NCBI RefSeq assembly: GCF_002214545.1
Contig: NZ_CP015105.1
Coordinates: 1-64,000 of the forward strand
DNA: 64,000 nucleotides
Direction: 5' to 3'
From: Thermococcus thioreducens
Lineage (GTDB): Archaea > Methanobacteriota_B > Thermococci > Thermococcales > Thermococcaceae
Positions 22,301-47,511 of this stretch are shown in pieces; position 1 is the stretch's first letter; every line of letters starts with the position of its first letter. The notes under the pieces are model-generated. The model made no database searches, was not told where the DNA came from, and saw nothing but the letters and a program-made list of their open reading frames with translations. The translations under genes and the position numbers were made by a program.

Positions 22301-23229
22301 ACCTCTTCGGGACGAGCCCCTTCAGCCCTTGATTCCCCTGAGGACTTCTTCTCTTCTTTCTCGGCCTTGCCCTTCTCCTTGGCTTCAACAAACTCCTTTA
22401 TCCAGTCCCAGCCCTCAACGCCCATCTTGTCTATGTACTTGACGAGCTTCTTGGCCTTCTGGAGGACACCCTCGGCCAGAACAAGAATCGCTCCGCCGCG
22501 AAGATGATTGGTCTCAACGCCGGGAACGTCCCTGTGGGAGACCTCGACTTTATCCGTTTCTTCACCGGTTATCTCGATGGGGATGTTTCTCATGGCGAGC
22601 CTTACCTCGTCTGCCTCGGGGTGGTACTGCAGCCTTGTAACTGCCCTGTGGTAGAGGTCTATCTCCTCGACCATTCTCTCGATGTGCTTCTCACTGGGCT
22701 TGAAGCGGTCGAGGCCGAGTTTCTTCCTCACGTAGTCGCCGACGAGGACGCTCAAAGCTTGAGCCGTCCCTCCGGAACTCCTTATCGGCCCCGCATAGTA
22801 GAGGGCGAGGTATTCGGAGTTATCGTCCCAGCTGTTGCGTTTGATTTTAACGTCGGCTATTCCCTCCAGTGGGGCCGAAACTATTCCCTCCGTGAGGATT
22901 GCCAGGGCCGTTCTGACCGCCTGCTCTGCGTACTTCTCCTTGCTCCCGAGGTCGCCGAACTTCCCCTCGATAATCTCATCAACGACCTTGAGGGCGGCGA
23001 GTTCCTTCCCGTACTCCTTGACGAGCTCCCTGATCCTCTCGGCGACGCCCTTCGGCCCAACGAGGCTCTCAACACGGCCGGCCATGTCGGTCGCCTGGGG
23101 CACCTCCACTTCCAGGCTGGGATCTTTGCCCTGCTCACGGGCCTTTCTCGCTACCTCGTAGGCCCGGTCTATCTCGCGCTGGAGGGACTCAAAGTAGGCC
23201 TTCATCTCGGGAGAATAAATCTCGGCCAT
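19336..23229 (-). CDS. polC: DNA polymerase D large subunit DP2 (catalytic)
   Basis: 1297 residues from ATG 23229 (GAGGGTG seven bases upstream, overlapping the DP1 stop); GTG 23244 is an alternative. DP2 is the polymerising subunit of archaeal PolD, with a double-psi-beta-barrel core like RNA polymerase. The catalytic stretch NCDGDEDSVMLLMDALLN lies near residue 960. Cysteine-rich zinc modules lie at about 700-770 (CPECGHTGPEHICPRCG, then HCAKCNVDY and CPKCGTEL) and about 1170-1195 (CVKCNTKY...CPKCGG). The highly basic tail ends KKGISLDEFFGS, a PCNA-interacting PIP box. Length shows there is no intein, unlike some Pyrococcus copies. Co-transcribed with DP1 and Orc1/Cdc6. Confidence 0.95.
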   Translation of the reverse strand: MAEIYSPEMKAYFESLQREIDRAYEVARKAREQGKDPSLEVEVPQATDMAGRVESLVGPKGVAERIRELVKEYGKELAALKVVDEIIEGKFGDLGSKEKYAEQAVRTALAILTEGIVSAPLEGIADVKIKRNSWDDNSEYLALYYAGPIRSSGGTAQALSVLVGDYVRKKLGLDRFKPSEKHIERMVEEIDLYHRAVTRLQYHPEADEVRLAMRNIPIEITGEETDKVEVSHRDVPGVETNHLRGGAILVLAEGVLQKAKKLVKYIDKMGVEGWDWIKEFVEAKEKGKAEKEEKKSSGESRAEGARPEEVKEKIEKGFYYELYERFKANIAPNKKYTKEIIGGRPLFAEPSKNGGFRLRYGRSRVSGFATWSVNPATMLVLDEFIAIGTQMKTERPGKGCIVTPATTVEGPIVRLKDGSVIRVDDYETALRVRDQLDEILYVGDALVNFGDFVENNQTLLPANYVEEWWIQELVNAIAETYEVELKPFSDNPRGAIEEAAEYLEVDPDFLEDLLKDPLRVRPSVEVAVHLSKVLDIPLHPYYTLYWNTLKPEEVEELQRALVNAQIERDEFRGIKFARKVVLENDPKIKRYLELLGLPHRLERTEGRKKVIVIDYPWSAALLTPLGNLEWEFRAKPFFTVIDIINENNRIKLRDRGISWIGARMGRPEKAKERKMKPPVQVLFPIGLAGGSSRDIKKAAEEGKVASVEIAFFKCPECGHTGPEHICPRCGTRKGLLWHCAKCNVDYPENEAESFDFHCPKCGTELKPYARRTIKPSELLRRAMENVKVYGIDKLKGVQGMTSGYKMAEPLEKGLLRAKNDVYVFKDGTIRFDATDAPITHFKPREIGTSVEKLRELGYTHDFEGKPLERDDQILELKVQDVILPYEAGRYLLKVARFIDDLLEKFYGLPRFYNAEKMEDLVGHLVIGLAPHTSAGIIGRIIGFSDVLVGYAHPYYHAAKRRNCDGDEDSVMLLMDALLNFSRYYLPEKRGGKMDAPLVVTTRLDPREVDSEVHNMDVVRYYPLEFYSATYEMKSPKEIKFIERVEDRLGRPEMYEGLKFTHDTDDIGLGPKMSLYKQLGDMVEKVERQLALAERIRAVDEHHVAETIINSHLVPDLRGNLRSFTRQEFRCVKCNTKYRRPPLTGKCPKCGGKNVLTVSKGAIEKYLPTAKMLVTKYNVLDYTRQRICLTEKDIKSLFENVFPERQRTLMGFSADVCEKMIKARTGKSNGRNGYLDELKANGKLKQKSKVGKKKESKSPKRSEKKVKPSQGLEKAVRKEKAAMKKKKKGISLDEFFGS

Positions 23230-43067: not shown

Positions 43068-43225
43068 GAGAATTTAACTCTTTTGCTCCCCGGTAGGTTT
43101 ATATATGTAAAATCCATGCCCTCTTAGAACACATGCTGGACAAAATATCCAGCCTTTCCGGATGTACCCATCTGCGGAGGAAGGCTTAAATATGGGCTCC
43201 CTAAAAACCTTCGGAGGTGGATACG

Positions 43226-44638
43226 ATGGAGGCTCCAAAGCTCGATTTCCTGTTTTATCCACGGAGCGTCGCGGTCATCGGGGCGTCAAACGTCCCAGGA
43301 AAGATAGGAAACTCGATAATGCGCTCAATAACGCTCAAATTCGATGGAAAGGTCTACGCCGTCAACGTCAAGGGTGGCGAAGTCGAGGTCAACGGGAAGC
43401 GCTTTAAAGTTTACAGGAGCATCAGGGAGATACCGGACGAGATAGATGTGGCCGTCATAGCGGTTCCCGCGAAGTTCGTCCCGGACGTTATAGACGAGTG
43501 CGGTGAAAAGGGCGTTAAGGGGGCGGTTGTCATCTCCGCCGGCTTCAAGGAGGCCGGAAGGGTCGAACTTGAGGAGGAGCTCGTAAGGAGAGCCAAGAAG
43601 TGGGGCATCAGGCTCGTCGGCCCCAACTGTCTCGGCGTCACCAACCTTGAGAACGGCTTCGACTGCAACTTCAACCCGCCGGAGAGACAGGCAAGACCGC
43701 CCGCTGGAAAGATAGCGTTCATGAGCCAGAGTGGAGCGTTCGGCGCTGCAATCCTTGACTGGGCGGCCAACCATGAGATAGGTATGAGCAAGTTCATCAG
43801 CCTCGGCAACATGGCCGACCTGGACGAGAGCGACTTCATAGCGTACCTTGGCGAGGATGAGAAGACCGGCGTCATCACCGGCTACATCGAGGGCGTTAAG
43901 GACGGGAGGAAGTTCTTCAACGTCGCCAAGGAGGTCACGCTCAAGAAGCCCATCATAGTCCTCAAAGCCGGAAGAACAGAGGCCGGCGCCAAGGCCGCCG
44001 CAAGCCACACCGGTTCGCTCGCGGGTTCCTACAAGATATACGAGGCCGCTTTTGAGCAGACCGGGGTTTTGAGCGCCAAGAGCATGCGCCAGCTCTTCAA
44101 CTACGCCAAAGCTCTGGCAATGCAGAAGCCGGCCAAAGGAAACCGCGTCGCCATAGTCACCAACGGCGGTGGGGCCGGGGTCATGATGAGCGACGGCCTG
44201 CTTGAGCGCGGCATGAAGCTCGCAGAGCTGAGCGATGAGACCAACGAGCGCTTTAGGAAAGACATCGAGGAAGGCAAACTCCCGCACCACATGTCTTACA
44301 GAAACCCGATAGACGTCATTGGCGATGCTCCCTCCAGCAGGTACGAGCTTGCCATGCGCTACGCGCTGGAGGATCCAAATGTTGATGTCCTCGTCGTCAT
44401 AGCGCTCTTCCAGAGCCCGGCTTTGGACGAGGGAATCGTCGAGGCGATGGTCAGAATGGGGGAGTACGGCAAGCCGATAGTCTTTGTGGCCCCCGGTGGA
44501 GACTACCCGCACAGGATGGCCAGGAGGATGGAGAAGGAAGCCGGTGTCCCCGTCTACGAGACAGTCGAGGACGGCGTCGATGCGGTCTATGCCCTCGTCA
44601 AGTACGGTGAGTGGCTGAGGGAGAACGAGAAGCTTTGA
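43226..44638 (+). CDS. ADP-forming acetyl/acyl-CoA synthetase, alpha subunit
   Basis: 470 residues from ATG 43226 (GGAGGTGG upstream). CoA-binding Rossmann domain starting FYPRSVAVIGASNVPGKIG (about 8-26), then the two ligase domains; the phosphohistidine loop is KAAASHTGSLAGS (about 255-267). Makes ATP from acyl-CoA with a separate beta subunit, the energy-conserving last step of sugar and peptide fermentation in Thermococcales. Compared with the paralogue at 13079 it has the canonical glycine loop and usual length, so it is the better candidate for a main ACD enzyme. No beta subunit gene is in the window. Confidence 0.9.
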   Translation: MEAPKLDFLFYPRSVAVIGASNVPGKIGNSIMRSITLKFDGKVYAVNVKGGEVEVNGKRFKVYRSIREIPDEIDVAVIAVPAKFVPDVIDECGEKGVKGAVVISAGFKEAGRVELEEELVRRAKKWGIRLVGPNCLGVTNLENGFDCNFNPPERQARPPAGKIAFMSQSGAFGAAILDWAANHEIGMSKFISLGNMADLDESDFIAYLGEDEKTGVITGYIEGVKDGRKFFNVAKEVTLKKPIIVLKAGRTEAGAKAAASHTGSLAGSYKIYEAAFEQTGVLSAKSMRQLFNYAKALAMQKPAKGNRVAIVTNGGGAGVMMSDGLLERGMKLAELSDETNERFRKDIEEGKLPHHMSYRNPIDVIGDAPSSRYELAMRYALEDPNVDVLVVIALFQSPALDEGIVEAMVRMGEYGKPIVFVAPGGDYPHRMARRMEKEAGVPVYETVEDGVDAVYALVKYGEWLRENEKL

Positions 44639-45457: not shown

Positions 45458-45892
45458 TTATCTCAGTATCTTCAGCGTTTCCACTCTTTTGAAATCATCA
45501 TCGAAGGTCGCTATCGTTTCTATCCCGTAGAACTCGCAGGTTGAGACGATCAGAGCGTCGTTTGGGAGGAGATGATACTTTTCAATTGCATTCTTCGAGT
45601 TCGACACTATATCGGAGTTTATATCCAGGGTGACGAATATGGAAAGGAGCTCAAAGAGCGGCTCCAGATCAACCTCGGCCAAGATTGAGGGAGTCTTCTT
45701 GATTTCATAGGATTTCATCCCAGTTTTAGCCTTTATGTAGAAGAACATGACCTCAGAGGCAACTATTGGGTTTATAAATCCCCTCACATCGCCGTTTTCA
45801 ACGCTTTCTATAAGTGATCTGGCTTTTTCTATGCCGCCTAAGTGATATATGAGAACGTTTGAGTCAAAGAAAACGTTAGGCCTGCCACTCAT
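45458..45892 (-). CDS. vapC: VapC-type PIN-domain toxin
   Basis: 144 residues. PIN ribonuclease core with the acidic quartet: NVFFDSNVLIYHL (Asp about 10), NPIVASEVMFFY (Glu about 47), LPNDALIVSTCEFYGI (Asp about 112) and IATFDDDFKRV (Asp about 130). VapC toxins cleave specific RNAs to slow translation and are held in check by VapB. It overlaps the antitoxin gene by 17 bp on the same strand, the normal VapBC order. Toxic activity is likely intact because no key residue is missing. Confidence 0.88.
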   Translation of the reverse strand: MSGRPNVFFDSNVLIYHLGGIEKARSLIESVENGDVRGFINPIVASEVMFFYIKAKTGMKSYEIKKTPSILAEVDLEPLFELLSIFVTLDINSDIVSNSKNAIEKYHLLPNDALIVSTCEFYGIETIATFDDDFKRVETLKILR

Positions 45893-46073
45893 CCTCGATC
45901 TCCTCTATTATTGCATCAATTTCATCCTTCTCCATCTTGACTATCCCAAAGGTTCTCTCCGATACCTTCTTTGGCAGAATCTTGAGGGTAACCTTGCTCC
46001 CCTCGGGAAGATTGAGCTTTTTCTTGGGTCTTAGAATTCCGTTTTCATAAACAGCCTCGACTGTGACTTCCAT
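45876..46073 (-). CDS. vapB: VapB-type antitoxin (AF2212/DUF104 family)
   Basis: 65 residues. N-terminal beta-rich DNA-binding part VEAVYENGILRPKKKLNLPE (about 5-24), the characteristic AF2212-like signature, and a C-terminal acidic helix KDEIDAIIEEIEDEW that would cover the toxin. First gene of the vapBC operon; probably autoregulates it. Start ATG 46073 with GTGGGAC just upstream. Confidence 0.88.
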   Translation of the reverse strand: MEVTVEAVYENGILRPKKKLNLPEGSKVTLKILPKKVSERTFGIVKMEKDEIDAIIEEIEDEWQA

Positions 46074-46230: not shown

Positions 46231-46239
46231 CTTTAAATT
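46231..46239 (+). promoter_or_regulatory. TATA box of the trpS leader transcript
   Basis: aaaaactttaaattcc: BRE-like A-run and TTTAAATT. Every base from 46240 to 46261 is a pyrimidine, so the first purine available for initiation is A46262, 27-28 nt from the TATA centre. This predicts transcription starting exactly at the leader ATG. Confidence 0.65.
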
Positions 46240-46261
46240 CCCTTCCTCCCTTTTTCTTTCC

Positions 46262-46291
46262 ATGCGCGGTGGTCGTTTTTGGCCCTGGTGA
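46262..46291 (+). CDS. Candidate Trp leader peptide, MRGGRFWPW
   Basis: ATG CGC GGT GGT CGT TTT TGG CCC TGG TGA: nine codons with two Trp codons, the second directly before the stop. It begins at the predicted transcription start, so it would be translated as a leaderless mRNA, and ends 65 nt before the TrpRS ATG. Between the two are a small hairpin TTTCC-act-GGAAA (46330-46342) touching the TrpRS RBS GGAGGTG (46344-46350), and CCTTCC (46294-46299), which could pair with GGAGG of that RBS. Stalling on Trp codons could therefore free or hide the RBS. Too short for gene finders; expression is not proven. Confidence 0.5.
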   Translation: MRGGRFWPW

Positions 46292-46356
46292 AGCCTTCCT
46301 TTTCTGCCCCGGCTTAGTCCTGAGTTTCGTTTCCACTGGAAATGGAGGTGTTTTGA

Positions 46357-47511
46357 ATGGACGAATTTAAGGTCACCCCATGGGACGTTGAGGGTGTTGT
46401 GGACTACGCGAAGCTGATAGAGGAGTTCGGAACCAGTCCGCTGACGGACGAACTGATAGAGAAAACAGCAGAGCTGACGAAGAGCGAACTGCCGATATAC
46501 TTCAGGAGGAGGTTCTTCTTCTCCCACAGGGACTACGACAAGGTTCTGGCTGATTACGAGAGCGGAAAGGGCTTTTTCCTCTACACCGGTAGGGGCCCGA
46601 GCGGTCCGATGCACATAGGCCACATCATTCCATTCTTCGCCACAAAGTGGCTCCAGGAGAAGTTCGGCGTGAACCTCTACATCCAGATTACGGACGACGA
46701 GAAGTTCCTCTTCAAGGAGAAGCTCACCTTCGACGACACCAAGAAGTGGGCCTACGACAACATCCTTGACATCATAGCTGTCGGCTTCGATCCGGACAAG
46801 ACCTTCATCTTCCAGGACAGCGAGTTCACCAAGATATACGAGATGGCGATACCGATAGCGAAGAAGATAAACTACTCGATGGCCCGTGCTGTTTTTGGCT
46901 TCACGGAGCAGAGCAAGATTGGGATGATATTCTACCCGGCGATTCAGGCGGCGCCGACCTTCTTTGAGAGGAAGCGCTGTCTCATTCCAGCGGCTATAGA
47001 CCAGGATCCGTACTGGAGGCTCCAGAGGGACTTTGCAGAGAGCCTCGGCTATTACAAGACCGCTGCCATTCACTCCAAGTTCGTGCCAGGGCTCATGGGC
47101 CTTGAGGGCAAGATGAGCGCCAGCAAGCCCGAGACGGCCATTTACCTCACCGACGACCCGGAGGAGGCCGGTAAGAAGATATGGAAGTACGCCCTAACCG
47201 GAGGCAGGGCAACCGCAAAGGAGCAGCGCGAGAAGGGCGGCGAGCCCGAGAAGTGTGTCGTCTTCAAGTGGCTGGAGATATTCTTCGAGGAAGACGACAA
47301 GAAGCTCATGGAGCGCTATCAGGCATGTAAGAACGGCGAGCTCCTCTGCGGCCAGTGCAAGCGCTACCTTATCGAAAAGGTTCAGAACTTCCTGAAGGAG
47401 CACCAGAGGAAGAGGAAAGAGGCCGAGAAGAAGGTCGAGAAGTTCAAGTACACCGGCGAACTGGCGAGGGAGCAGTGGGAGAAGAGCATCCCGGGGCCTC
47501 TGAGGGGCTGA
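46357..47511 (+). CDS. trpS: Tryptophanyl-tRNA synthetase
   Basis: 384 residues, the archaeal/eukaryotic type. Class I synthetase charging tRNA-Trp. Signature motifs: GPSGPMHIGHIIP (HIGH, about 82-94) and GKMSASKPE (KMSKS variant, about 251-259). The N-terminal extension and the eukaryote-like core (YIQITDDEKFLF, IFYPAIQAAPTFF) are normal. Four cysteines near the C-terminus (CKNGELLCGQCKRY) might bind zinc. ATG 46357 follows GGAGGTG. An unusual 95-nt leader carries a Trp-rich nine-codon ORF. It ends before the M1-like peptidase gene, which has its own promoter (ttttttatactc, near 47540). Confidence 0.95.
   Translation: MDEFKVTPWDVEGVVDYAKLIEEFGTSPLTDELIEKTAELTKSELPIYFRRRFFFSHRDYDKVLADYESGKGFFLYTGRGPSGPMHIGHIIPFFATKWLQEKFGVNLYIQITDDEKFLFKEKLTFDDTKKWAYDNILDIIAVGFDPDKTFIFQDSEFTKIYEMAIPIAKKINYSMARAVFGFTEQSKIGMIFYPAIQAAPTFFERKRCLIPAAIDQDPYWRLQRDFAESLGYYKTAAIHSKFVPGLMGLEGKMSASKPETAIYLTDDPEEAGKKIWKYALTGGRATAKEQREKGGEPEKCVVFKWLEIFFEEDDKKLMERYQACKNGELLCGQCKRYLIEKVQNFLKEHQRKRKEAEKKVEKFKYTGELAREQWEKSIPGPLRG

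What the first reader, a model, noticed from the sequence alone, without database searches (positions are those of the whole stretch)
46231..46357. Leaderless Trp-rich leader peptide (MRGGRFWPW) in front of tryptophanyl-tRNA synthetase
The trpS promoter TATA (46231-46239) is followed by 22 consecutive pyrimidines; the first purine is A46262, the A of an ATG that opens a nine-codon ORF with Trp at codons 7 and 9, then TGA. Two Trp codons in nine, right before the stop, in the only TrpRS leader of the window, is hard to explain by chance. The ORF ends 65 nt before trpS, and the intervening RNA offers a hairpin abutting the RBS plus a CCTTCC that could pair with it. This resembles bacterial trp attenuation or translational control, but here on a leaderless archaeal mRNA. 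I know of no described archaeal example.
Basis: partly seen in the sequence, partly recalled or inferred. Interest (0 to 1): 0.82.

Follow-up and report, generated by a model that had tools for sequence, protein, structure and literature searches.

The report
Tryptophan-starvation frameshift switch in archaea
A tiny reading frame in front of the archaeal tryptophanyl-tRNA synthetase gene looks like a shortage gauge: when charged tryptophan tRNA runs low, the ribosome should slip one base at a tryptophan codon and read on towards the enzyme gene, and the same device sits on tryptophan-making genes across several archaeal lineages.

Summary
In detail: ATG46262 opens MRGGRFWPW*, 30 nt after the TATA box and 65 nt before trpS. 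It is no accident of one genome. All 83 distinct trpS leaders compared, from Thermococcaceae (six genera) and Korarchaeia, carry M-x-G-[G/D]-x-[F/L]-W with a stop 0-5 codons later.

The hairpin-attenuation reading is not supported. The best explanation is a programmed +1 frameshift at a hungry Trp codon. The invariant core is GGTG-N5-YTT-TGG. YTT|T is the shift site of bacterial release-factor-2 genes (CUU_U, rarely UUU_U), with UGG in place of UGA. In the window the +1 frame is open from the slip to 14 nt inside trpS. In Korarchaeia and Caldarchaeales it runs straight into TrpRS, and two Korarchaeia genes have no other start codon. The same cassette, fused in the +1 frame, sits on trpC (14 of 15 Thermococcaceae that have it), trpE and a trpB-like gene. 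Pattern searches of whole genomes recover mostly Trp genes.

I infer that Trp-tRNA shortage makes ribosomes slip into the frame that yields, or is coupled to, the enzyme. No experiment shows the slip. An internal GTG start in the +1 frame is the main rival. A 2016 review says no natural hungry-codon example was known.

The parts
46232..46237 (+). TATA box (TTTAAA) of the trpS promoter, 30 nt before the uORF ATG
   Evidence: TATA-to-ATG 28-30 nt in 82 of 83 trpS leaders while ATG-to-GTG varies 7/10/13
46262..46291 (+). Leaderless 9-codon uORF MRGGRFWPW* (frame 0)
   Evidence: conserved as M-x-G-[GD]-x-[FL]-W with an in-frame stop 0-5 codons later in all 83 distinct leaders
46268..46274 (+). GGTGGTC, conserved GGTG element inside the uORF; proposed SD-like frameshift stimulator (complementary to the archaeal 16S 3' end from general knowledge, not tested)
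   Evidence: codon 3 GGT 75/75 and codon 4 GGT/GAT 75/75 in Thermococcaceae although GGT is only 123 of 732 Gly codons in trpS genes
46277..46280 (+). Proposed +1 slippery site TTT_T (P-site UUU slips to UUU)
   Evidence: codon 6 TTT 73/75, CTT 2/75, never TTC, although TTC:TTT is 839:107 in the trpS genes of the same group; CUU_U and UUU_U are the RF2 shift sites (PMC5009743)
46280..46282 (+). Hungry codon TGG (Trp7), the proposed sensor
   Evidence: invariant in all trpS leaders and in the trpC, trpE and trpB-like cassettes
46281..46370 (+). Trans-frame (+1) reading frame GPGEAFLFCPGLVLSFVSTGNGGVLNGRI*, open from the slip to 14 nt inside trpS
   Evidence: in 83/83 leaders the +1 frame reaches at least to within 3 nt of trpS or continues into it, the -1 frame always has an early stop
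46289..46291 (+). Frame-0 stop (TGA) that ends translation when Trp is plentiful
46330..46342 (+). Short hairpin TTTCC-ACT-GGAAA just upstream of the trpS SD; near-invariant within the genus, role unknown
46344..46350 (+). Shine-Dalgarno GGAGGTG of trpS
46357..47511 (+). trpS, tryptophanyl-tRNA synthetase

Best explanation
The uORF is a hungry-codon-gated +1 frameshift switch. Ribosomes start on the 5'-terminal AUG. When Trp-tRNA is plentiful they decode UGG (codon 7) and stop a few codons later. When Trp-tRNA is scarce they pause with UUU (or CUU) in the P site and an empty UGG in the A site; the P-site tRNA slips one base onto UUU, perhaps helped by the upstream GGUG element, and translation goes on in the +1 frame. 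In fused genes (trpS of Korarchaeia and Caldarchaeales; trpC, trpE and trpB-like genes) the +1 frame is the enzyme itself, so the product is M-x-G-x-x-[F/L]-G...enzyme. In Thermococcus trpS, as in the window, the +1 frame carries the ribosome through the leader to the trpS start, where I infer that coupled re-initiation (or continued transcription-translation coupling) raises TrpRS. Shown: anatomy, conservation, frame and gene specificity. Inferred: that the slip happens, that it depends on Trp-tRNA, and the coupling step.
For: (1) Frame: +1 open to the trpS start in 83/83 leaders of all three length classes mod 3, -1 closed in 83/83; shuffles of 10 diverged leaders give P about 6e-6 for all being open. 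(2) Fusion: +1 = trpS frame in every overlapping case, Korarchaeia and Caldarchaeales alike; L167 and L183 have no ATG/GTG/TTG in the trpS frame. (3) Four unrelated Trp proteins carry the same cassette fused in +1: trpC 14/15 found by family search, trpE 19/19 and trpB-like 8/8 plus one degenerate copy, identities by NCBIfam. (4) Pattern-found loci with a frame-0 stop within 20 codons: 32; 27 have a +1 ORF of 100 codons or more, 1 has such a -1 ORF. (5) YTT and GGT are fixed against strong codon bias. (6) CUU_U/UUU_U and an internal SD are the RF2 hallmarks (PMC5009743). (7) TATA spacing is tied to ATG, not to the +1-frame GTG.
Against: No experiment, ribosome profile or peptide was available. 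A GTG (from GGTG) lies in the +1 frame in nearly all cases, and trpC often has ATG there too, so internal starts could make the enzyme without slippage. Within Thermococcus the trans-frame peptide shows no amino-acid constraint (105 changes observed, 106 expected) and stop avoidance alone is weak (9% of null runs have none). The GGTG element sits about 7 nt from the shift codon in SD register, not 3 nt as in RF2, so its role is uncertain; pairing with 16S was not tested here (the motif hit is an RBS). How frame-0 termination lowers trpS in Thermococcus is not explained by structure. The trpE and trpB-like clusters were found by a pattern that imposed YTTTGG.
Confidence: 0.82

Rival explanations
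1. Dual starts without slippage: the enzyme (or +1 ORF) starts at the GTG formed by GGTG in the +1 frame, and the Trp uORF is a competing overlapping ORF.
For: GTG is present in the +1 frame in nearly all cassettes; 10/14 trpC also have ATG there. It would explain the fixed GGTG.
Against: L167 and L183 have no start at all in that frame; L168 only a GTG overlapping the SD. TATA or SD spacing fits the ATG while ATG-to-GTG varies 4-13 nt. It does not explain the fixed YTT TGG nor the restriction to Trp genes, and a ribosome stalled at UGG would block a GTG a few nt away, the wrong sign of control.
Confidence: 0.1
2. Classical attenuation: stalling at Trp codons on the leader switches hairpins that hide the trpS SD or terminate transcription.
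For: Trp codons in a leader ORF before TrpRS; a short hairpin next to the SD in Thermococcus.
Against: SD accessibility equals shuffled controls in 14 leaders at 37 and 75 C; no room for hairpins in overlapping types; it cannot explain +1 fusion of four proteins or the fixed YTT.
Confidence: 0.04
3. Nascent-peptide arrest: the short peptide M-x-G-D-x-F-W senses free Trp or stalls at the stop, as in TnaC.
For: G3 and F/L6-W7 are conserved at residue level.
Against: Residues 2, 5, 8 and 9 vary freely; conservation is at nucleotide level (GGT, YTT); it leaves the +1 fusion unexplained.
Confidence: 0.03
4. The GGTG..TTTTGG block is a DNA or RNA protein-binding operator that happens to encode a peptide.
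For: Strong nucleotide conservation.
Against: Insertions between ATG and GGT are multiples of three, in-frame stops follow in varied sequence, and the +1 frame rule holds; the position relative to the promoter varies (leaderless or SD-led).
Confidence: 0.01

Closest known systems
Bacterial release factor 2 (prfB) autoregulatory +1 frameshift
   Same: Short frame-0 ORF, CUU_U (rarely UUU_U) shift site before a slowly decoded A-site codon, SD-like element upstream, enzyme encoded in the +1 frame, autoregulatory logic (PMC5009743)
   Different: A-site codon is sense UGG, sensing charged tRNA-Trp instead of a release factor; archaeal; several genes; GGTG further from the shift codon; some members use coupling instead of fusion
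ermC leader frameshifting
   Same: Ribosomes that shift frame in a leader ORF read on through the spacer and switch on the next gene (PMC5009743), as proposed for the window's trpS
   Different: Trigger is an antibiotic, not aminoacyl-tRNA shortage
Bacterial trp and phe leader peptides (trpL, pheL)
   Same: Leader ORF with codons for the regulated amino acid before biosynthetic or synthetase genes
   Different: They act by hairpin switching; pheL frameshifting is judged incidental (PMC5009743); no conserved switching hairpins here
TK0271 activator and TrpY of Thermococcales
   Same: Trp-responsive control of trpCDEGFBA in T. kodakarensis is ascribed to the TK0271 protein (PMC6737238)
   Different: Transcription factors; TK0271 binds upstream of BRE/TATA. 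The cassette would be an added translational layer

Membership tests
RF2-type programmed +1 frameshift | CUU_U or UUU_U shift site | tested here: met
RF2-type programmed +1 frameshift | Product encoded in the +1 frame after a short frame-0 ORF with an early stop | tested here: met
   fused trpS, trpC, trpE and trpB-like; window trpS only by coupling
RF2-type programmed +1 frameshift | Slow A-site codon is UGA decoded by the gene product | tested here: not met
   the codon is sense UGG; so it is not an RF2 cassette, though it may work like one
RF2-type programmed +1 frameshift | SD-like stimulator 3 nt before the shift codon | tested here: inconclusive
   GGTG conserved but about 7 nt away in SD register; 16S pairing not tested
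RF2-type programmed +1 frameshift | Frameshift occurs in the cell | not testable with these tools
   no proteomics or ribosome profiling
Trp transcription or translation attenuation | Leader ORF with codons of the regulated amino acid | tested here: met
Trp transcription or translation attenuation | Conserved mutually exclusive RNA structures | tested here: not met
   SD accessibility as in shuffles
T-box or other described RNA element | Rfam match | tested here: not met
   only a tRNA in the window

The most novel reading that the evidence does not exclude
The first natural starvation sensor made of a hungry sense codon plus a programmed +1 frameshift: an archaeal tryptophan regulon (trpS, trpC, trpE, trpB-like) in which scarcity of charged tRNA-Trp is required for, or greatly raises, synthesis of the Trp enzymes, found from Thermococci through Korarchaeia and Caldarchaeales to other Thermoproteota/Nitrososphaerota.
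Probability: 0.78. Interest if true: 0.96.

Novelty: categorically new. Interest (0 to 1): 0.94.

Why it matters
Hungry-codon frameshifting has been studied mainly as a starvation-induced error. The 2016 review of the field says it could serve starvation-specific products but that no examples are known (PMC5009743). No archaeal attenuator or riboswitch had direct in vivo support as of 2014 (PMC4247193). If true, this is a third way, beside attenuation and T-boxes, to read out aminoacyl-tRNA supply. It would explain how many archaea regulate Trp genes, correct the start annotation of trpE, trpC, trpB-like and trpS genes, and give a 21-nt portable Trp sensor. It is directly testable in T. kodakarensis.

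Tried and rejected
Hairpin attenuation: folding of 14 leaders with two ribosome positions at 37 and 75 C gave no SD sequestration beyond shuffles. Amino-acid-level constraint on the Thermococcus trans-frame peptide: none found. Two-Trp rule: codon 9 is not conserved. TTG start in the -1 frame after GGTG: -1 frame lengths vary and are sometimes only 2-5 codons. Direct check of the 16S 3' end: the only GGATCACCTCC in the genome proved to be an RBS on the other strand, not rRNA. Rfam: no known RNA family. Other +1-open pattern hits, L298 (weak ParB_N) and L309 (no family), are treated as chance or unknown.

Full report
What is there. trpS is a TrpRS by NCBIfam. No Rfam family matches here.

Is it real? 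I took trpS from 55 genomes of the genus, 86 of 94 Thermococcaceae in all, and from other archaea and compared the upstream regions. All 83 distinct leaders in the Thermococcaceae plus Korarchaeia set carry the uORF. The core is ATG-(1-3 codons)-GGT-G[GA][TC]-NNN-YTT-TGG, then a stop 0-5 codons later (TGA, TAA or TAG). Insertions before GGT are whole codons (MPSGDVFW, MTSGDLLWP, MMKLGDCFWLW). The stop is kept in otherwise drifting sequence. This says the ORF is translated. TATA-to-ATG spacing is 28-30 nt in 82 of 83 and stays put when ATG-to-GGTG grows by 3 or 6 nt, which fits a leaderless start at the ATG. A strict pattern hits about once per Thermococcaceae genome, with no control hits; 82 of 86 hits are at trpS and the other 4 at trpC (matched by place).

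What is conserved is not just Trp. Codon 3 is GGT in 75/75 and codon 6 is TTT or CTT in 75/75 Thermococcaceae, although trpS genes of the same group use TTC:TTT 839:107 and GGT for 123 of 732 glycines. The third base of codon 6 is what a +1 slip needs: YUU_U lets the P-site tRNA re-pair with UUU. CUU_U, rarely UUU_U, before a slowly decoded codon and after an internal SD is the RF2 cassette (PMC5009743). Here UGG, the Trp codon, stands where RF2 has UGA.

The +1 frame. After the slip, the +1 frame is open to within 3 nt of the trpS start or beyond in 83/83 leaders. In the Thermococcaceae its stop lies at -3, 0, +4, +8 or +14 relative to the trpS ATG (one at +43), although leader lengths fall in all three classes mod 3; the -1 frame has an early stop in 83/83. 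Ten diverged leaders all being open has P about 6e-6 by dinucleotide shuffles. In Korarchaeia (L049-L057, L167-L180, L183; class named from Methanodesulfokora) the +1 frame continues into TrpRS itself. So it does in Caldarchaeales and relatives (L197, L198, L201, L205, L207, L210, L211, L214, L290; names). L167 and L183 (MMGDRLWQR*, MGDRLWKR*) have no ATG, GTG or TTG in the trpS frame at all: the slip, or a non-standard start, is needed to make TrpRS. L181, L182, L199, L203, L204 and L206 show the Thermococcus-like separate form, with the +1 frame ending just past the trpS start. Some relatives have lost it (L208, L209, L212, L213, L215-L217).

Other genes. A stray second hit of the pattern led to trpC. 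A family search found trpC in only 15 of 94 Thermococcaceae (the window genome has none over the cut-off, so it is probably a Trp auxotroph); 14 of the 15 carry an SD-led uORF (MGDGFWIEQGY*, MTGDGFWPEQGN* and so on) whose +1 frame, from the slip, is IGPS. In T. kodakarensis trpC is the first gene of the single trpCDEGFBA mRNA (PMC6737238). A pattern search not tied to any gene then found the cassette on trpE in the class of Pelearchaeum and Geocrenenecus (8 loci), and in 398 genomes of the phylum of L104's genome two recurrent groups: one on trpE (11/11 fetched), one on a trpB-like gene (9 fetched, 8 intact). NCBIfam names the products: TrpE-arch 3.5e-144 and 5.4e-115 (below the model's own cut-off, the second a truncated piece), TrpB-like 1.1e-171, TrpC 9.2e-105. 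Over all pattern loci delivered, 32 have a frame-0 stop within 20 codons; 27 of them have a +1 ORF of at least 100 codons and one has such a -1 ORF. Twenty-five of the 27 are trpS or trpE. Four unrelated proteins share nothing but tryptophan and this cassette.

Mechanism. I propose that Trp-tRNA scarcity leaves UGG empty, the P-site YUU tRNA slips +1, and the ribosome reads on in the enzyme frame. With Trp-tRNA abundant the ribosome stops a few codons later. For fused genes this makes the enzyme directly. For Thermococcus trpS, including the window, the shifted ribosome is carried to the trpS start; the ermC leader is a described case in which frameshifted ribosomes read through the spacer and enable the next gene (PMC5009743). 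Folding gives no sign that the SD is specially hidden, so the benefit may be coupled re-initiation or protection of the nascent transcript by coupled translation; that step is a guess. The GGTG element resembles an SD and may stimulate the slip; its pairing to 16S rests on general knowledge and its spacing differs from RF2.

Rivals. The strongest is internal initiation at the GTG that GGTG supplies in the +1 frame (or ATG in 10/14 trpC). Against it: L167 and L183 lack it, promoter and SD spacing fit the ATG, the fixed YTT-TGG would have no reason, and a stalled ribosome would then repress under starvation. Hairpin attenuation fails on structure and on the fused genes. The weak points are these: no expression data; trans-frame peptide of Thermococcus unconstrained and stop avoidance within the genus only suggestive; trpE and trpB-like groups found with a pattern that contains YTTTGG (their +1 fusion and gene identity are independent of it).

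Novelty. The 2016 recoding review calls productive hungry-codon frameshifting possible but without known examples; the 2021 review of archaeal recoding had no hit for tryptophan or Thermococcales in its text; searches to 2026 in the open library found none. Subscription papers were not searchable. It works like RF2 control but is not a member, since the sensed codon is a sense codon. I therefore rate the kind as new and the mechanism as very probable but unproven.

Noticed in passing
window 45458-45892 (-) and 45876-46073 (-): PIN-domain toxin (PF01850) with an AF2212-like antitoxin (PF01954), a VapBC-type pair, divergent to trpS. In several relatives a gene whose end resembles the CoA-ligase gene at 43217-44638 stops right at the trpS promoter, so DNA including this pair seems to have come in between here.
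   Followed up: partly
window 46330-46342: TTTCC-ACT-GGAAA block just before the trpS SD has almost no substitutions in 43 Thermococcus leaders; some RNA-level role not explained by the frameshift model.
   Followed up: partly
L231-L244, about 60-75 nt upstream of trpC: Conserved TGTCCAAA-type element before the TATA box, possibly the binding region of the TK0271-type activator (PMC6737238).
   Followed up: no
L356 (G341:C1, about 22749-22766): Second, degenerate copy of the trpB-like cassette and gene (113-codon +1 frame) in a genome that also has an intact copy (L357).
   Followed up: no
L298 position 1500 and L309 position 1500 (minus strand): Two Korarchaeia-phylum cassette look-alikes (MGGLLWFSP*, MGDHLWPP*) with open +1 frames of 163 and 134 codons, one weakly ParB_N-like, not known Trp genes; chance or new targets.
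   Followed up: partly
window genome G000: No trpC over the Pfam cut-off although 15 relatives have it; the organism is probably a Trp auxotroph that keeps only the trpS switch.
   Followed up: no
L245: A divergent trpC (61% identity) in G003 without the cassette, possibly acquired from elsewhere.
   Followed up: no
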